64,000 nucleotides of DNA, taken from Clostridium beijerinckii. GTDB taxonomy: Bacteria; Bacillota; Clostridia; Clostridiales; Clostridiaceae. Where the stretch lies: positions 4,847,001 through 4,911,000 of the forward strand of contig NZ_CP144906.1 in NCBI RefSeq assembly GCF_036699995.1, written 5' to 3'. The stretch's first letter is position 1. Every line of letters starts with the position of its first letter. Of this stretch, positions 18,852 through 36,264 are shown piece after piece. The notes under the pieces are model-generated. The model searched no databases, was not told the origin of the DNA, and saw nothing but the letters and a program-made list of their open reading frames with translations. The translations under genes were made by a program, and so were the position numbers.

Positions 18852-19653
18852 ACTTTTAATTGTAGAAGATGAAGAAATGATTAGAAAAGGAGTACGCTAC
18901 ACTTTTGATTGGGAAAAATCAGGTGTTGTTGTTATTGATGAAGCTTCAAACGGCAAAGAAGGATTAGAAAAAATTCAATCTTTAAAGCCAGATATAATCT
19001 TAGTTGATGTAAATATGCCCATTATGAATGGAATTACTATGCTACAAAATAGTATAAAAGAATATAAATATAGTGCAATTATTATATCTGGATATGATGA
19101 ATTTTCATTAGCTAAAGAAGCAATACATCTAGGTGTAACTGAATATCTATTAAAACCTTTAGATAATGATCAGCTATATAACGCATTGGAAAAAGCAAAA
19201 GAACAGGTTACTTTATTAAGAGAACATGCAATTGTGCAGAATAAAATTTATAATTCAAAAGAATTAATTACACTTCAGAATAAACTTTTAAAGGATATTT
19301 CATATTCTTCTAAATATGTGACACAGATGCTCAATTATATCCACAAAGAATACCCCAAAAAAATCACTATCCAGAACCTGGTAGATATATTAGGTGTTAG
19401 TTCTACTTATCTTAATAATCAATTTAAGAAAGAAACCTCATATACATTTAACGATTATTTAAATAGATATAGAGTAAATCAGGCTATAAATATTATGAAG
19501 ACAGGTAAAGGAAAAATATATACTATTGCTACTGATGTGGGATTTAAAGACTACAGATATTTTATTAATGTATTTAAAAAATATACAAATTGCTTACCAA
19601 GTGACTTTATAGAATATTTTAAAGATACTTATTATAAAAATATCTCAGAATGA
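18844..19653 (+). CDS. response regulator with AraC-type DNA-binding domain, YesN family
   Basis: The 269-residue protein has a receiver domain (1-120; phospho-acceptor Asp55 in LVDVNMP, lysine in LLKPLD) and a C-terminal AraC helix-turn-helix pair (about 160-260; NLVDILGVSSTYLNNQFKKE and IATDVGFKDYRYF). It is shorter than most YesN proteins, which have a longer middle region. Translationally coupled to the kinase. The likely target is the divergent ABC operon, with the palindrome at 17005-17022 as candidate site. Confidence 0.92.
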   Translation: MFKLLIVEDEEMIRKGVRYTFDWEKSGVVVIDEASNGKEGLEKIQSLKPDIILVDVNMPIMNGITMLQNSIKEYKYSAIIISGYDEFSLAKEAIHLGVTEYLLKPLDNDQLYNALEKAKEQVTLLREHAIVQNKIYNSKELITLQNKLLKDISYSSKYVTQMLNYIHKEYPKKITIQNLVDILGVSSTYLNNQFKKETSYTFNDYLNRYRVNQAINIMKTGKGKIYTIATDVGFKDYRYFINVFKKYTNCLPSDFIEYFKDTYYKNISE

Positions 19654-19673
19654 TTTTTCAATCACTCTGAGAT
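19642..19673 (+). terminator. terminator of the two-component operon
   Basis: ATCTCAGAATGATT and AATCACTCTGAGAT form a 14-bp stem with one mismatch and a TTTC loop. The left arm contains the stop codon of the response regulator. Confidence 0.7.
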
Positions 19674-20550: not shown

Positions 20551-21564
20551 TTAGATTTGCTTATCTTCAATTTTTGCTACAGCTTTAACTTTATTCATTA
20601 GCACATCAAATTGATCTGGAGTAAGTGATTGTTGTCCATCACTTAGTGCATTTTCAGGATCGTTATGAACTTCTATCATAAGTCCATCAGCCCCAGCTAT
20701 AATTGCTGCTTTTGCCATTGGTTCTACCAAGTAAGCATATCCACCTGCATGACTTGGATCAACAATTATAGGTAAATGTGATAATTTCTTAATTACTGGA
20801 ACTGCTTGCAAATCTAATGTATTTCTTGTAATAGTTTCGAATGTTCTTACTCCTCTTTCACAAAGAATTACATTTTCATTTCCACCTGCCATAATATATT
20901 CTGCTGACATAAGCCATTCTTCTATAGTTGCAGATAAACCTCTCTTTAATAGTATTGGTTTATTTGTTTTACCTATTTGCTTTAATAGATCGAAATTTTG
21001 CATATTTCTAGCACCAATTTGAATCATATCCACTTCTTCAACAAAAGTATCTAAGTAATCAGTAGACATAAGTTCTGTTACTATAGGAAGTCCTGTTTCC
21101 TGTTTTGCTGTTTTTAAAAGTTTTAATCCTTCAAGCTCTAAACCTTGAAAGCTATAAGGTGAAGTTCTTGGTTTAAACGCCCCACCTCTTAAAAAGTTAG
21201 CTCCTGCCGCTTTTACTCTTTTTGCGATTTCAACAATTTGTTCTTCACTTTCTACAGAACATGGTCCAGCCATTATCCCAAGTCTTCCACCACCAACTAT
21301 TGATCCCTCAATATTAACTACTGTATCTTCAGGCTTAAATATCCTGTTTGCTTTCTTAAAAGGTTCTTGAACTTTCATAACCCTATCTACACCTTTTAAT
21401 ACTTGTAATTTTTTAGGATCTAATATTGAAGTATCACCAACAGCTCCTACTATAAAATATGTGTCTCCTTTAGAAAGATGGGCTTCTAATCCTTTTGATT
21501 CAATTACCGCCTTTACCTTCCTTACATCTTCTTCACTTGCTTTTGGGTTCATAATAATTATCAT
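20551..21564 (-). CDS. aroF: 3-deoxy-7-phosphoheptulonate (DAHP) synthase, type I-beta, distal copy
   Basis: A 337-residue enzyme that joins phosphoenolpyruvate and erythrose 4-phosphate, the first step of the shikimate pathway. Residues 1-80 are a ferredoxin-like regulatory domain (MIIIMNPKASEEDV) and the rest is the barrel with MAGPCSVESEEQI, GGAFKPRTSPYSFQGL, LLKRGLSATIEEWL and DPSHAGG. A nearly equal paralogue opens the same operon at 28699-29712. The two differ most in the N-terminal domain, so they may be inhibited by different amino acids. The start ATG has AGGAGG. Confidence 0.95.
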   Translation of the reverse strand: MIIIMNPKASEEDVRKVKAVIESKGLEAHLSKGDTYFIVGAVGDTSILDPKKLQVLKGVDRVMKVQEPFKKANRIFKPEDTVVNIEGSIVGGGRLGIMAGPCSVESEEQIVEIAKRVKAAGANFLRGGAFKPRTSPYSFQGLELEGLKLLKTAKQETGLPIVTELMSTDYLDTFVEEVDMIQIGARNMQNFDLLKQIGKTNKPILLKRGLSATIEEWLMSAEYIMAGGNENVILCERGVRTFETITRNTLDLQAVPVIKKLSHLPIIVDPSHAGGYAYLVEPMAKAAIIAGADGLMIEVHNDPENALSDGQQSLTPDQFDVLMNKVKAVAKIEDKQI

Positions 21565-28698: not shown

Positions 28699-29712
28699 TT
28701 ATATTTCTCTTCCAACAGCCGCTGCAATAACTTTTAACTCTTCCATGAGTTTTGCAAACTTACTTGGCTTTATTGATTGTGGACCATCACATAATGCATT
28801 TTCTGGATCATTATGAACTTCAATAATAAGTCCATCTGCTCCAACTGCAACCGCTGCTTTTGCTAGAGGTTCAACCATCCAGTACTTTCCTGCAGAGTGA
28901 CTTGGATCAATTACTATAGGTAAGTGACTTAATTTTTTAACAGCAGGTACTGCACTTAAGTCTAAAGTATTTCTTGTGTAGTTTTCAAATGTTCTTATTC
29001 CTCTTTCGCACAGAATTACATTTTCATTACCACCAGCCATAATATATTCAGCTGACATTAACCATTCCTCTATAGTTGCTGATAAACCTCTTTTTAATAA
29101 TATCGGCTTGTTAGTTTTGCCAAGTTCCTTTAGTAAATCAAAGTTTTGCATATTTCTAGCGCCAACTTGAATTACATCTACATTTTCAACAAACGTTTCT
29201 ATATCATAAGGAGACATAAGCTCTGTAACTATTGGCAATCCTGTATTTGCTCTTGCTTTCTTTAAAAGTTCTAACCCTTCATATTTCATTCCCTGGAACG
29301 CATATGGTGAAGTTCTTGGCTTAAATGCTCCGCCTCTTAAGAAATTTGCCCCAATTTCCTTAACTTCTTTTGCTATTTCAATGATTTGTTCTTCGCTTTC
29401 AACAGAACATGGACCTGCAATCATTGCTATTTTCTTTCCACCAATTTTAACTCCATTAATATCTACTATTGTATCTTCTGGATGAAACATTCTATTTGCT
29501 TTTTTGAAAGGTTCTTGAACTTTCATAACTCTTTCAACTATTCCATTAGCTGCAACAACCGAAGGATCTATTGCACTTGTATCCCCAACTAATCCCAAGA
29601 TACTAACATCTGATCCAACAACTAGGCTCACTGAAACTCCCTTTGCTTCTAGTTGTTTTGTCAATCTTTCTATTTCTTCCTGCTTTGCTTTTTGCTTTAA
29701 TATTACTACCAT
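28699..29712 (-). CDS. aroF: DAHP synthase, type I-beta, leader-proximal copy
   Basis: A 337-residue paralogue of the distal DAHP synthase with the same architecture: ferredoxin-like domain (1-80, MVVILKQKAKQEEIERL) and catalytic barrel (MIAGPCSVESEEQI, GGAFKPRTSPYAFQGM, LLKRGLSATIEEWL, DPSHSAGKYW). It is the first structural gene after the attenuator, 37 nt behind its U run, with ribosome-binding site AAGGGGG. Being both the pathway entry enzyme and the first gene makes it the main target of the leader control. Confidence 0.95.
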   Translation of the reverse strand: MVVILKQKAKQEEIERLTKQLEAKGVSVSLVVGSDVSILGLVGDTSAIDPSVVAANGIVERVMKVQEPFKKANRMFHPEDTIVDINGVKIGGKKIAMIAGPCSVESEEQIIEIAKEVKEIGANFLRGGAFKPRTSPYAFQGMKYEGLELLKKARANTGLPIVTELMSPYDIETFVENVDVIQVGARNMQNFDLLKELGKTNKPILLKRGLSATIEEWLMSAEYIMAGGNENVILCERGIRTFENYTRNTLDLSAVPAVKKLSHLPIVIDPSHSAGKYWMVEPLAKAAVAVGADGLIIEVHNDPENALCDGPQSIKPSKFAKLMEELKVIAAAVGREI

Positions 29713-29748: not shown

Positions 29749-29783
29749 AAAAAAAAATGGAACTCATGTATAATGAGTTCCAT
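29749..29783 (-). terminator. attenuator terminator in the aromatic operon leader
   Basis: ATGGAACTCAT, loop of 5 nt, ATGAGTTCCAT: a perfect 11-bp stem immediately followed on the minus strand by eight to nine U residues. It stands between the promoter and the first aroF, so it stops transcription before the operon unless prevented. Confidence 0.9.
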
Positions 29784-29861
29784 AAAATATCAATACTGAT
29801 ATATATTACAAACTTATATAAAATATAAAAAACTCATTAAAAAGGTATTTTTCAGTTTTTT
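29757..29861 (-). promoter_or_regulatory. four-segment attenuator (alternative RNA pairings)
   Basis: Read on the minus strand: segment 1 AAAAAACT (29854-29861), segment 2 TAATGAGTTTTTT (29827-29839), segment 3 ATGGAACTCATTA (29771-29783), segment 4 ATGAGTTCCAT (29757-29767). Segments 1:2 pair over 8 bp, 2:3 over 9 bp (TAATGAGTT with AACTCATTA), 3:4 over 11 bp as terminator. A ribosome stalled in the Phe/Tyr run would cover segment 1 and free segment 2 to block the terminator; a ribosome reaching the stop would cover segment 2 and let the terminator form. Confidence 0.78.
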
Positions 29862-29960
29862 GCAAAATAAATAGCCAGCGCTAAAATAAAAGCCCCAGAA
29901 TGTAAAATAAAAAAAGCTATAAAATTTTTGCATAACTGATTTTACAATATCCTTTTCCAT
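29814..29960 (-). CDS. Phe/Tyr-rich leader peptide of the aromatic operon
   Basis: A 48-codon ORF starts at the ATG 29958-29960 with GGAG 7 nt upstream. Residues 13-26 read FYSFFYFTFWGFYF: 11 of 14 are aromatic, and the whole peptide holds 11 Phe, 5 Tyr and 1 Trp. The ORF lies between a consensus promoter and the attenuator terminator and ends at TAA 29814-29816. Its codons 33-36 form RNA segment 1 and codons 41-45 form segment 2. This is the design of amino-acid attenuators such as enterobacterial pheL. No T-box is seen here. A small membrane protein is the alternative reading, but the position and pairings favour a sensor of charged tRNA-Phe/Tyr. Confidence 0.8.
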   Translation of the reverse strand: MEKDIVKSVMQKFYSFFYFTFWGFYFSAGYLFCKKLKNTFLMSFLYFI

Positions 29961-30041
29961 GATTTTCTCCATTTCTAAATTTAATAATTATTTTCACGAA
30001 TATTAATTACAATATTTACATTTAAATTTAATCTTTTTATC

Positions 30042-30069
30042 ATTATAACAAACTATATCTAATTGTCAA
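30042..30069 (-). promoter_or_regulatory. promoter of the aromatic operon
   Basis: Minus strand TTGACA (30064-30069), 16-bp spacer, TATAAT (30042-30047): both hexamers match the sigma-A consensus exactly. The expected start is near 30035, giving a leader of about 320 nt before the first aroF, with room for the leader peptide and attenuator. Confidence 0.88.
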
Positions 30070-30260: not shown

Positions 30261-30291
30261 AAAAAAACACCTAAATACTAGGTGCTTTTTT
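30261..30291 (-). terminator. terminator of the MFS transporter gene
   Basis: ACACCTA and TAGGTGC with A-runs and T-runs on the two sides form a hairpin (AAAAAACACCTA / TAGGTGCTTTTTT). It directly follows the MFS stop on the minus strand and separates it from the aromatic promoter region. Base composition allows function in both directions. Confidence 0.8.
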
Positions 30292-30304: not shown

Positions 30305-31471
30305 CTATAATTGCTTAATTGATTGTTTGCTCTTAGGAAGAATCTTAATAGAAACTAGCAAAGAAATTACCATAATTGAGAAACCAACCAGATACATTGC
30401 AGTATATCCAAAATTTCTTTGGATTGTACTAAACATATGTGGGTATACAAAGTTAGCTCCTGCTGATCCCAGCACGCTAACAAATGAATATGTACCAGCA
30501 ACTAGTTCGTCATCAACTACTTCTCTTATATATTTAAATAAAAATGTTAAATAACAACCATACATTAGGCCATGTAATTGATCCCCTAAGACAACTAAAG
30601 GCATAGAACCTGTTGAAAATAAAAGTATTCTAGTAGCTCCTATAAGAAATGCTATTATTAAATATTTCTTAGGTTTTTTATCCTTTAGGTACTTTCCTAC
30701 AAGCATGAATGATATAAATTCAACACATACTCTTGAAAATATAGATTTGCTATATATAGAATTAGCCAAATCAGCATTTCCCGTTATTTCAATTAAATAT
30801 GTTGAATATGCAAATTCTATTGCGGTGTAAGTTCCTATGATTAGAATATTAATTACTCCGAGAATTACTGAATTTTTATTTTTAAATACAGCAATTAATT
30901 TCCCTCTATTGGGATTTCCATCTGCTTCAATATTCTTAAACTTCATAGCTATTAATAATATAACTATACATGACATTATGATTCCTATTATATGCATAGT
31001 TTTAAATCCATATTTTAAAATTATAGTTCCACTTAATAAAACTACGCACCCAAATCCTATGGATCCCCATTTTCTTATTTCTGAATACTCTACATTTTTT
31101 CTAACTGCTATTTCTTCAACATATACTTCATATACATTTCCAATTGTTTGTACTATAATTCCATAAAGAACTGCATAAAAATATATAATAGTCTTGTTAA
31201 CAGACATTAAAAATACTATCATTCCAATAAGTGCGCATAAATGTATGATAATAAATCTTTTTTTGTTTTTTCTCATCGAAAATTTACTTACTAAAAATTG
31301 CTGTGAAAGAATTGCAAATAATGCTCCTATAGATACTACAGTTCCAACTTGACTTAATGATAATCCAACTACTTGATTCAAATATGGTACATAAAAAGTA
31401 GTCACTATACTCGTTACTCCATAATTTATATAAGTAGTCAAGGAATAATAAAACTTTTCTTTGCTTTTCAT
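30305..31471 (-). CDS. MFS transporter, LacY/NupG-like (MFS_1) family
   Basis: A 388-residue integral membrane protein with about 12 helices, starting SLTTYINYGVTSIVTTFYVPYL. The motif SEIRKWGSIGFG near 132-143 and the loop GKYLKDKKPKKY near 257-268 are typical of the group that includes LacY- and PrpT/YwbF-like carriers. I chose the ATG at 31469-31471, spaced 6 nt from GGAG; a TTG four codons earlier would coincide with that site. It stands alone with its own terminator. Substrate unknown. Confidence 0.85.
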   Translation of the reverse strand: MKSKEKFYYSLTTYINYGVTSIVTTFYVPYLNQVVGLSLSQVGTVVSIGALFAILSQQFLVSKFSMRKNKKRFIIIHLCALIGMIVFLMSVNKTIIYFYAVLYGIIVQTIGNVYEVYVEEIAVRKNVEYSEIRKWGSIGFGCVVLLSGTIILKYGFKTMHIIGIIMSCIVILLIAMKFKNIEADGNPNRGKLIAVFKNKNSVILGVINILIIGTYTAIEFAYSTYLIEITGNADLANSIYSKSIFSRVCVEFISFMLVGKYLKDKKPKKYLIIAFLIGATRILLFSTGSMPLVVLGDQLHGLMYGCYLTFLFKYIREVVDDELVAGTYSFVSVLGSAGANFVYPHMFSTIQRNFGYTAMYLVGFSIMVISLLVSIKILPKSKQSIKQL

Positions 31472-31667
31472 ATAATGCTCCAATCCTAATGAATTAAATA
31501 TTTCTCCTATTCACTTCTATTATTAAATTTATATATTAAATTATACTCAGTTAAGAAAAAGTTTCCATAACATTAGCAATTTTGTAAAAATAATTATTTA
31601 AGTTCCATAAAAAGTATTTTTAACACTCGTTTATTTAATAGATATTAAGTAAAATACTTAGGCATAT

Positions 31668-33417: not shown

Positions 33418-33433
33418 ATTATTAAAATTTTAT

Positions 33434-33673
33434 ATTGTGCGATGAATAGGAGTACTAGTAATAATTATATCTTAAAGAGAGCTGTTGTTTGGTGTAAAAT
33501 AGCGTTATATTATTATGAACTTGCCTAGGAGCTTACTTGTTAAAAGCAAGTACGGTAAACCCGTTAAAATAATAAGTGAGAAGGATAAATTTGTTTTTTA
33601 TCTCTTCTAATTAAGAGTGGTACCACGGAAATTATGCTTTCGTCTCTTTGTTTTAGAGATGAGAGCTTTTTTA
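33434..33673 (+). ncRNA. T-box leader (leucine) before leuS
   Basis: The T-box core AGAGTGGTACCACGG lies at 33614-33628, followed by the terminator hairpin at 33634-33672 (CTCTTT / AGAGA region ending in a T run). The upstream part fits stem I to stem III of a T-box, beginning TTGTGCGATGAATAGGAG. Uncharged tRNA-Leu should bind and switch the terminator to the antiterminator, turning on leuS. A CTT at 33520-33522 within GAACTTGCC is a possible specifier codon for leucine; this placement is tentative. Confidence 0.93.
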
Positions 33674-33813: not shown

Positions 33814-36264
33814 ATGGCAAATTACGGAACAAAAATTGATGAAAAGTGGCAAAAATTTTGGGAGGAGAATGAGGTTTATAAATTTAATCCTGAAAATTTA
33901 GATAAAAAACTCTATACATTAGAAATGTTTTCTTATCCATCAGGTGCTCAATTGCATGCTGGTCACTGGTTTAACTATGGTCCAACAGATTCATGGGCAA
34001 GACTTAAGAGAATGCAAGGATATAATGTATTCCAACCAATGGGATTTGATGCCTTTGGATTACCTGCTGAAAATTATGCTATAAAAACAGGAATTCATCC
34101 TCAAGATTCTACTTTAAAAAATATTGAGACAATGGAAAAACAATTGAAATCTATGGGTGCTATGTTTAACTGGGAAAACGAAGTTGTTACTTGTCTTCCT
34201 GATTATTATAAATGGACTCAATGGCTATTCTTGAAACTTTACGAGAAAGGTCTAGCTTACAGAAAAAAAGCACCTGTAAATTGGTGTCCATCATGCAATA
34301 CAGTATTAGCTAATGAACAAGTTGTTGATGGTGTTTGTGAAAGATGTAGTACTGAAGTTACAAAGAAAGATCTTACTCAATGGTTCTTTAAAATAACTGA
34401 GTACGGCGATGAATTACTTGATAAATTAGATGGTTTAGATTGGCCTGAAAAAACAAAGTCTATGCAAAAGCACTGGATTGGAAGATCTTATGGTGCAGAG
34501 GTTACTTTCAAAGTCAAGGATTCAGATTTGAAATTCGATGTATTTACTACAAGAGTTGATACTTTAAACGGTGTTACTTATGTAGTTTTAGCTCCTGAAA
34601 ACAAACTAGTTGATGAGTTAACTCTTCCAGAGTATAAGGCTGCTGTTGAAGAATATAAGGAAGCTGCTGCAAAGCAATCTGAAATTGAAAGACAATCAGT
34701 TTCAAAAGAAAAGACAGGAGCATTCACAGGATCTTATGCCATTAACCCTATTAACGGAAAAATAGTTCCTATTTGGATTTCTGATTATGTATTGGCTACT
34801 TATGGTACAGGATGTGTTATGGCAGTTCCTGCTCATGATGAAAGAGATTTTGCTTTTGCAACAAAATTCAATTTACCAATCGAAAGAGTTATAACTGATA
34901 AAGAAAATACTAATCCAGACCTTCCATATTGCGAATATGGAGTACTTGTTAATTCAGGAAAATTCGATGGATTAACAACTGATGAGGCTAAAAAGAAAAT
35001 CGTTGAAGAATTAGAAAAAGATGAATTAGGAGCAATGAAGAAAAACTTCAGATTAAGAGACTGGCTAGTTTCAAGACAAAGATATTGGGGTGCTCCAATT
35101 CCTGTTATATACTGTGATGATTGTGGAATAGTTCCAGTACCTGAAAAGGATCTTCCAGTGAAACTTCCTTACAATGTTGAATTTACGCCAGATGGTAAAT
35201 CACCATTAGGTAAATGTGAGGATTTTGTAAATACAACTTGTCCTCATTGTGGGAAGCCTGCAAAGAGAGAAGCTGATACTTTAGATACTTTTGTATGTTC
35301 ATCTTTTTACTATTTAAGATATGTAGACAATAAAAACGATGATGCACCTTTTGATTCTGAAAAAGTCAACAAAATGCTTCCTGTAGACAAATATGTTGGT
35401 GGACCAGAACATGCTTGCATGCATTTATTATATGCTAGATTCATAACAAAAGCTCTAAGAGATATGGGATATTTAAACTTTGATGAACCATTCTTAAGCT
35501 TAACTCACCAAGGATTGATATTAGGACCAGATGGACTTAAAATGAGTAAATCAAAAGGAAATACTATTTCTCCTGATGATTATATTAAAGAATATGGCGC
35601 TGACGTATTTAGAATGTATTTAATGTTTGGATTTGGTTATACTGAAGGTGGAGCTTGGAGCGACGATGGAATAAAATCTGTTGGCAAATTCGTGGATAGA
35701 ATTGAAAGAATCCTTGAAAATTGCAGAAATATAATAAATTCAAATGAGAGCACTAAAGATTCTATTGATTCAGCTGAAAAAGAATTAAACTTCTGGAAAC
35801 ATAATACTATTAAAGGTGTTACTGAAGACGGAGATAAAATGCAATTTAACACTGCAATAGCAAGACTTATGGAGCTTACAAATGCTCTTAATAAGTACAC
35901 TCAAGAAAATATTAAAAACGCAAACTTCTTAAAAGAAACTATAGTTGATTTCATAAAACTACTTGCACCATTTGCTCCTCACTTTGCTGAAGAGCAATGG
36001 AGCTTACTTGGAAATAATTCAACAATCTTTAATGAAAAATGGCCAGAATTTAATCCTGCTGCTTTAGTTAAAGATGAAGTCGAAATTGCAATCCAAATAA
36101 ATGGTAAAATAAAGACTAAAATCATGGTAGCTTCTAATTTAGATGAAGAAGGTATAAAATCTGCTTCATTAGAAAATGAGACTATTAAAGAAAATACTGA
36201 AGGTAAAACTATAGTTAAAGTTATTGTAATTAAAGGAAGACTTGTTAATATAGTTGTAAAATAA
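33814..36264 (+). CDS. leuS: leucyl-tRNA synthetase
   Basis: This 816-residue class-I synthetase charges tRNA-Leu. The HIGH-type motif is HAGH at 48-51, KMSKS is at 576-580, a zinc-type cluster CPSC...CERC lies near 157-177, and the editing domain with TTRVDTLNG occupies about 220-420. The C-terminal tail matches the bacterial length class. Start ATG follows AGGAGG. It is preceded by its own promoter and T-box and ends at a strong terminator, so it is monocistronic and controlled by leucyl-tRNA charging. Confidence 0.97.

What the first reader, a model, noticed from the sequence alone, without database searches (positions are those of the whole stretch)
29749..30069. Peptide-translation attenuator with a Phe/Tyr-rich leader before the whole aromatic operon
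Seen: a consensus promoter, a 48-codon ORF with ribosome-binding site and 11 of 14 aromatic residues at positions 13-26, then a perfect terminator with U run before aroF. Segments in and after the ORF can pair 1:2 (8 bp), 2:3 (9 bp) and 3:4 (11 bp), and segment 1 starts just after the aromatic run. Known: this is the arrangement of enterobacterial pheA and trp attenuators. In clostridia such operons are more often thought of as T-box controlled; no T-box is visible here. Inference: shortage of charged tRNA-Phe or tRNA-Tyr stalls the ribosome and opens the ten-gene operon. A leader of this size controlling shikimate, Phe and Tyr genes together in a Clostridium may be undescribed.
Basis: partly seen in the sequence, partly recalled or inferred. 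Interest (0 to 1): 0.92.

Follow-up and report, generated by a model that had tools for sequence, protein, structure and literature searches.

The report
Aromatic leader-peptide attenuator before shikimate operon
A short Phe/Tyr/Trp-rich reading frame folds over its whole length into an RNA that, with the terminator behind it, very probably lets the ribosome sense aromatic amino acid shortage and switch on a ten-gene shikimate, Phe and Tyr operon; related leaders occur in many clostridia and some of their relatives.

Summary
In detail: a 12/12 extended -10 promoter, a 48-codon ORF with RBS, 11 aromatics in codons 13-26, and an 11-bp terminator with eight U ahead of aroF (minus strand). It heads a ten-gene aro/phe/tyr operon; no T-box was found before it. 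The leader family occurs in 56 of 68 genus genomes (E<1e-8), 134 of 206 family genomes (E<=1e-3), and sparsely beyond; 26 of 26 out-of-family hits checked precede aro/phe/tyr genes. The RNA is selected beyond the peptide: synonymous-permutation folding z averages -2.4 (n=153), 147 two-sided compensatory cells against 76 shuffled, GGC and TTC codons fixed in 44 of 44. The real 1:2 is ORF-long: RBS and first codons pair with the ORF's end (AAUGAG), which otherwise pairs with the terminator arm. Best explanation: ribosome-mediated transcription attenuation. In my model a stalled ribosome alone does not free segment 2; segment 1 must also be blocked, for example by a trailing ribosome. Prior art: Stav 2019 (Fig. 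6b legend) already lists two shikimate-linked Phe/Tyr uORF candidates. No experimental data.

The parts
30042..30069 (-). Promoter TTGACA-16-TATAAT, extended -10
   Evidence: 12 of 12 consensus; a TTGACA-like -35 and TATAAT-like -10 recur upstream of most of the 44 genus leaders aligned (by eye)
29814..29960 (-). Leader ORF, 48 codons (alternative ATG at 29972)
   Evidence: homologues
29883..29924 (-). Aromatic codons 13-26 (FYSFFYFTFWGFYF)
   Evidence: sequence; densest 14-residue window has median 10, minimum 6 aromatics in 137 leaders
29935..29967 (-). Segment 1: RBS/start region and codons 2-9, pairs with segment 2
   Evidence: duplex -15.0 kcal/mol; covariation
29829..29856 (-). Segment 2: end of ORF; AAUGAG at 29838-29833
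   Evidence: AATGAG exact in 99 of 137 leaders, 2% in dinucleotide shuffles; 50 and 46 of the 99 in two reading frames, 3 in the third
29771..29781 (-). Segment 3 (GGAACUCAUUA): pairs with segment 2 (antiterminator) or with segment 4
   Evidence: duplex -10.7 kcal/mol
29757..29783 (-). Terminator hairpin (3:4), 11 bp
   Evidence: -13.6 kcal/mol
29749..29756 (-). U run of the terminator (8 T)
29861..29932 (-). P2 helix: 29932-29926 with 29867-29861 (UGCAAAA:UUUUGCA)
   Evidence: MFE; helix 3, 6 of 7 pairs with two-sided changes, 67% of cells paired (the window row is one column off in A2)
29871..29920 (-). P3 helix: 29920-29915 with 29876-29871 (AUAGCU:GGCUAU), competes with the base of P4
   Evidence: MFE; not separately tested
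29877..29896 (-). P4 hairpin with G.G mismatch, within codons WGFYFSA
   Evidence: mismatch purine-purine in 63 of 65 rows, A-T in 2
28699..29712 (-). aroF, DAHP synthase, first gene
   Evidence: NCBIfam NF006421, TIGR01361
19694..28571 (-). aroB, aroA, aroC, pheA, aroE, aroK, aroQ, aroF2, tyrA
   Evidence: aroK and tyrA below the curated cut-offs
19642..19673 (-). Terminator-like hairpin after tyrA (operon end)

Best explanation
A ribosome-mediated transcription attenuator for the whole aromatic operon. Shown by comparison: the ORF, its aromatic codons, segment 2 (AAUGAG), the terminator and the 1:2 helix are conserved, and the ORF-long helices covary. Inferred: when Phe-, Tyr- and Trp-tRNA are charged, the ribosome runs through the ORF and over segment 2, and 3:4 terminates transcription. 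When nothing is translated, segment 1 (RBS and first codons) pairs with segment 2 in an ORF-long hairpin (P1, with P2-P4 nested inside it) and 3:4 again terminates. When the ribosome stalls on the aromatic codons, which lie between segments 1 and 2, the ORF-long hairpin is split; with segment 1 also kept busy, most simply by the next ribosome loading on the RBS, segment 2 pairs with segment 3 and RNA polymerase reads through into aroF.
For: Leader-peptide profile hits: 56 of 68 genus genomes at E<1e-8; 145 of 206 family genomes at E<=0.1, 134 of them at E<=1e-3; one hit in the own genome. Of 153 unique leaders, 147 precede an aroF, aroB, aroK- or aroE-like gene by similarity; 3 more by eye, 2 lie at contig ends, 1 (L262) is unassigned. 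Out-of-family hits precede aro/phe/tyr genes in 18 of 18 and 8 of 8 checked. In 8 leaders the first gene is aroB; those genomes gave no aroF copy above 69% identity. SD>=4 in 135 of 137, ATG in 132. Terminator found in 137 of 140. 1:2 covaries: cognate -14.1 against non-cognate -9.7 kcal/mol, beating 85.6% of 30 sampled crosses each; 1:3 control 50.7%. Two-sided changes 147 cells against 75.9 shuffled and 65-86 slid. Synonymous permutation: mean z -2.38, 108 of 153 leaders at p<0.05; window z -3.0, 1 of 1000. Model: window P(2:3) 0.99 with stall and upstream blocked, 0.00 free, 0.01 at the stop; means over 137 are 0.65, 0.25, 0.07.
Against: Masking only a stalled ribosome leaves 1:2 in place in the model (window P(1:2) 0.65, P(2:3) 0.00; mean P(2:3) over 137 is 0.28, free 0.25), so an extra block of segment 1 or a kinetic effect is needed. 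In 45 of 137 leaders P(2:3) stays at or below 0.5 even in the blocked state, and in 35 it exceeds 0.5 when free. 2:3 itself barely covaries (cognate beats 55.5% of crosses) because the motif is almost fixed. RNAalifold on its own recovers only P4 in the wide alignment. AATGAG lies 12-60 nt before the stop in 77 of 137 leaders, 16 nt in the window, so there a ribosome at the stop masks it poorly or not at all. Control (a) is known to be exceeded by related sequences without structure. No transcript, ribosome-profiling or starvation data.
Confidence: 0.87

Rival explanations
1. The leader is a riboswitch or tRNA-sensing RNA in which the folded core (P2-P4) binds a ligand, and the ORF is incidental.
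For: Core bases are fixed well beyond coding need (GGC 44 of 44 where the operon's usage is 6%); purine-purine mismatch kept in 63 of 65 rows; structure selected beyond peptide.
Against: RBS (135 of 137), ATG (132 of 137) and a dense aromatic block (all 137) are kept while helix sequence changes. No Rfam family matches at gathering score in the leader regions searched. Most fixed bases are explained by P4 pairing.
Confidence: 0.06
2. A nascent-peptide arrest leader: the conserved W-G-x-x-F-S-A-G-Y peptide itself stalls the ribosome on a free aromatic amino acid, as TnaC does with Trp (recalled).
For: Non-aromatic residues G, S, A, G and the W are strongly conserved in the genus.
Against: Those residues are the arms of P4, and codons as well as residues are fixed. 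Distant leaders change the residues together with the pairing (by eye). Segment 2 is kept in two main reading frames.
Confidence: 0.05
3. A small aromatic membrane protein gene that happens to precede the operon.
For: The hydrophobic block followed by KK resembles a membrane helix (by eye).
Against: Terminator in 137 of 140, covarying RNA, 147 of 153 unique leaders before aromatic-pathway genes by similarity, variable ends and frames.
Confidence: 0.02

Closest known systems
Stav et al. 2019 candidate uORFs of shikimate genes (PMC6429828, Fig. 6b)
   Same: uORFs with Phe and Tyr codons and a structure model, associated with shikimate genes, in a study that includes Clostridium novyi (legend, sections 13 and 15 and passages read).
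   Different: Cannot be compared: figure and supplement not readable here. I do not know whether it is the same family or what pairing was drawn. It may well be the same.
uORFC-13-1 motif, Acholeplasma aroF (PMC8632094)
   Same: uORF with Phe, promoter, RBS and terminator before aroF (passage).
   Different: Reported only from Acholeplasma (and unassigned environmental sequences), 24 examples, at least one Phe codon; sequence not compared.
Enterobacterial pheA/pheST/trp attenuators (recalled)
   Same: Leader peptide with control codons and alternative 1:2, 2:3, 3:4 pairing ending in an intrinsic terminator.
   Different: Here segment 1 is the RBS and first codons rather than the control codons, and the 1:2 structure encloses the whole ORF; all three aromatics; no match to the Rfam leader families.
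His leader peptide of bacilli hisS/hisZ (PMC2965389) and Leu-rich ilv leader of S. aureus (PMC5794164)
   Same: Leader-peptide attenuation in Firmicutes (passages of the first; search listing only of the second).
   Different: Other amino acids, other genes; no ORF-long structure mentioned in what I read.
T-box leader
   Same: Senses tRNA charging before amino acid genes in Firmicutes.
   Different: None found before this operon; this works through an ORF.

Membership tests
Ribosome-mediated transcription attenuator (leader peptide type) | Translatable short ORF with RBS at the operon head | tested here: met
   SD>=4 in 135 of 137, ATG in 132 of 137; translation itself not tested
Ribosome-mediated transcription attenuator (leader peptide type) | Control codons for the operon's end products | tested here: met
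   mean 7.6 F, 5.2 Y; W in 121 of 137; genes
Ribosome-mediated transcription attenuator (leader peptide type) | Intrinsic terminator before the first gene | tested here: met
   137 of 140
Ribosome-mediated transcription attenuator (leader peptide type) | Mutually exclusive 1:2, 2:3 and 3:4 pairing, conserved | tested here: met
   1:2 covaries; AATGAG in 99 of 137; 2:3 covariation itself weak
Ribosome-mediated transcription attenuator (leader peptide type) | Stalled ribosome at control codons blocks segment 1 | tested here: inconclusive
   Footprint alone does not free segment 2 in the model; it does if upstream RNA is blocked
Ribosome-mediated transcription attenuator (leader peptide type) | Read-through rises on starvation | not testable with these tools
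   needs experiment
T-box | Rfam RF00230 match before the operon | tested here: not met
   none in the 20 loci; in the 14 loci one T-box, in L044, on the strand opposite to aroF and just before a trpD-like gene (positions)
Rfam Phe_leader / Trp_leader | Match at gathering score | tested here: not met
   E<=10 search of the leader region
Stav 2019 shikimate uORF candidates | Same consensus sequence and structure | not testable with these tools
   figure and supplement not held
uORFC-13-1 (Acholeplasma) | Same consensus | not tested
   only the describing passage was read

The most novel reading that the evidence does not exclude
The ORF-long hairpin is a new attenuator design: the RBS and start codon themselves are segment 1, so the second (trailing) ribosome, not the stalled one, keeps the antiterminator strand free, making the switch read ribosome queueing; and the near-invariant P4 hairpin (G.G mismatch, tandem U.G/G.U) inside the control codons is a dedicated element, such as an RNA polymerase pause hairpin or a binding site, beyond simple pairing.
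Probability: 0.25. Interest if true: 0.8.

Novelty: new variant of a known kind. Interest (0 to 1): 0.62.

Why it matters
Clostridial amino acid operons are usually discussed under T-boxes (recalled). A leader-peptide attenuator this widespread, heading the common aromatic pathway and reaching families outside Clostridiaceae, gives a single testable sensor for Phe, Tyr and Trp supply, has no match in Rfam 15 in my searches, and shows coding sequence under simultaneous codon, peptide and RNA-structure constraint. It also raises a concrete question: how does a stalled ribosome break a helix whose strands lie on both sides of it?

Tried and rejected
Peptide-only explanation of WG..SAG: rejected because codons are fixed too while aroF shows 0 of 25 glycine and 0 of 7 phenylalanine columns fixed at >=0.98 (1 of 9 serine, 1 of 5 tyrosine) in the 20 of 30 genus aroF genes that could be extracted. 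A W-rich ORF (MWFWRKWICISYEGIRIE) upstream of second-copy aroF genes: by eye the end of aroQ read in another frame, so not a leader. T-box: none found. TRAP-like UAG repeats: judged by eye only, no support. Whole-alignment RNAalifold found only P4, so the other helices rest on the named-structure counts, the duplex test and per-sequence folds. P3 was not separately tested. A second, weak covariance-model hit in the own genome (E 3.55) is taken as chance. Rows dropped: the 44-leader codon table came from 55 leaders chosen by a motif pattern that missed two genus leaders, L090 (ATC in place of TTC, GGC kept) and L109 (deletion); L148 and identical rows were then dropped. L267-L269 and L272 are not in the 153. 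13 of the 153, without an aroF/aroB call or with short flank, and 3 without a detected terminator (L101, L214, L261) are not in the 137. Terminator counts over relatives have no shuffled control; the window's has. Of 29 out-of-family class hits, 18 were checked.

Full report
What is there. On the minus strand, ahead of aroF, lies a compact leader: promoter 30069-30042 (12 of 12 consensus with extended -10), a 48-codon ORF 29960-29814, and an 11-bp terminator with eight U whose stem ends 45 bases before aroF. Rfam finds no element here at gathering score; the only hit in the window is a T-box at 33433-33650 on the other strand. The ten following genes are DAHP synthase, AroB, AroA, AroC, PheA (chorismate mutase and prephenate dehydratase), AroE, AroK, AroQ, a second DAHP synthase and TyrA (AroK and TyrA matched below the families' curated cut-offs), closed by a terminator-like hairpin at 19673-19642.

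Conservation. Loci were collected by aroF and by a leader-peptide profile, A1. At E<=0.1 the profile hits 145 of 206 family genomes (134 at E<=1e-3), 31 of 46 genera; within the genus 58 of 68 at E<=0.1, of which 56 below 1e-8. In the own genome there is one hit, and a covariance model also gives one strong hit (E 7e-13). In a class sample 41 of 391 genomes hit at E<=1e-3, 29 of them outside the family, and in a phylum sample 10 of 398 at 1e-4, 8 outside the family. I checked 18 of the 29 class loci (L273, L280-L296) and all 8 phylum loci: 18 of 18 and 8 of 8 precede an aromatic gene on the same strand (24 DAHP synthase, one tyrA and one pheA as best match). Of 153 unique leaders collected before that, the next gene by similarity is aroF in 132, aroB in 8, aroK-like in 6 and aroE in 1; of the 6 others, 3 precede aromatic genes by eye, 2 lie at contig ends and L262 is unassigned. 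The aroB-first genomes gave no aroF above 69% identity, so the leader stands at the operon head whichever gene is first. Some genomes carry up to four leaders; the extra ones stand before shikimate-kinase-like, aroE or another DAHP synthase gene (by similarity and by eye).

Constraint on the RNA, not only the peptide. In 44 unique genus leaders, GGC at alignment column 27 and TTC at column 25 are fixed in 44 of 44, although GGC is 6% and TTC 21% of the window operon's usage for those residues; the second GGC is 38 of 38 glycines. Two genus leaders fell outside that table because of the motif pattern used: L090 has ATC in place of TTC, L109 a deletion. In aroF of the same genus no conserved glycine column (0 of 25, 20 genes) reaches 98%. 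Permuting synonymous codons within each leader raises the folding energy: mean z -2.38 over 153 unique leaders, 108 of 153 at p<0.05; for the window -27.3 against a mean of -19.5 kcal/mol, 1 of 1000 as low.

Structure. Single-sequence folds show a long nested stem over the ORF in most of those shown: P1 joins the start region with the end of the ORF; P2 (UGCAAAA:UUUUGCA), P3 (AUAGCU:GGCUAU) and P4 (with a G.G mismatch) are nested within. In the fold of the leader alone at least 3 of the 6 bases of AATGAG pair with the start region in 105 of 137. On a 65-row alignment, P1, P2 and P4 give 75.9% paired cells (70.4 shuffled), 147 cells changed on both sides (75.9 shuffled, 0 of 500; 65-86 with slid partners) and a covariation score of 0.228 (0.07-0.12 slid). 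Many P1 and P2 cells are unpaired (those helices are 65-74% paired), perhaps partly from alignment error; and one slid control had more pairs with a two-sided change (25 against 22). Cognate segments 1 and 2 pair at -14.1 kcal/mol against -9.7 for crossed partners. The end-of-ORF motif AATGAG is exact in 99 of 137 leaders (2% in shuffles), 50 and 46 of them in two different reading frames and 3 in the third, so it is an RNA signal. It pairs with the terminator's 5' arm and loop; 2:3 itself shows little covariation (55.5% of crosses beaten).

How it likely works. Segment 2 chooses between segment 1 (termination) and segment 3 (read-through). In partition-function folding of the RNA before arm 4 is made, the window gives P(1:2) 0.65 and P(2:3) 0.00 when free; 0.65 and 0.00 with a stalled footprint; P(2:3) 0.99 when everything upstream of the stalled ribosome is unavailable; 0.62 and 0.01 with a ribosome at the stop. 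Means over 137 leaders for P(2:3) are 0.25, 0.28, 0.65 and 0.07. The switch therefore has the right sign only if the upstream strand is blocked too. Because segment 1 contains the RBS and start codon, a following ribosome is the simplest blocker; this is inference. In 77 of 137 leaders, the window's included (16 nt), AATGAG lies at least 12 nt before the stop; there a fast ribosome would act by passing over segment 2, or 1:2 would re-form behind it, rather than by sitting on it. A genus genome (G062) keeps a promoter-like site and a CUCAUC/GAUGAG terminator before aroF but no leader ORF by eye, so the leader can be lost.

Comparison with print. Leader peptides in Firmicutes were called new in 2010 (His leader in bacilli, PMC2965389, passages). 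A T-box survey reports a T-box before Tyr biosynthesis for the B. cereus group (PMC2494555, passage). Stav et al. 2019 (PMC6429828) shows in Fig. 6b two candidate uORFs with F and Y associated with shikimate genes, from five genomes that include C. novyi (legend read; figure and supplement not readable). PMC8632094 describes uORFC-13-1 before aroF in Acholeplasma. PMC11109978 does not contain the word aroF in its main text. My searches of the held library listed no paper that I could see to give this family's peptide, range or ORF-long pairing; I opened five papers, and subscription journals are mostly not held.

Verdict. A real, widespread, well-supported leader-peptide attenuator; a known kind, probably glimpsed before as a computational candidate, with an unusual ORF-long 1:2 structure and an unexplained fixed hairpin. 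Function is untested by experiment.

Noticed in passing
33433-33650, plus strand: T-box leader (Rfam RF00230, 123 bits) upstream of the gene at 33814, which looks like leucyl-tRNA synthetase (by eye).
   Followed up: no
L199, L204, L215-L217, L225, L235, L249; L044, L049: Extra copies of the leader in some genomes stand before shikimate-kinase-like, aroE or another DAHP synthase gene.
   Followed up: partly
L044, 2184-2445 minus strand: A T-box just before a trpD-like gene, downstream of that locus's second aromatic leader.
   Followed up: no
L271 (genome G062), upstream of its first aroF: Promoter-like site and terminator remain but no leader ORF: an apparent natural loss (by eye).
   Followed up: partly
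P4, alignment A2 columns 105 and 126: Purine-purine mismatch kept in 63 of 65 rows (GG 54, AG 5, GA 2, AA 2) and tandem U.G/G.U wobbles mostly kept; not explained by pairing strength.
   Followed up: no
20551-21564 and 28699-29712, minus strand: Two DAHP synthase genes (about 66% identical) at the two ends of one operon; some relatives show only copies of the more distant kind, and then the leader precedes aroB.
   Followed up: partly
30268-30284: Hairpin with T runs on both sides between the leader promoter and the gene at 30305-31483; probably that gene's terminator.
   Followed up: no
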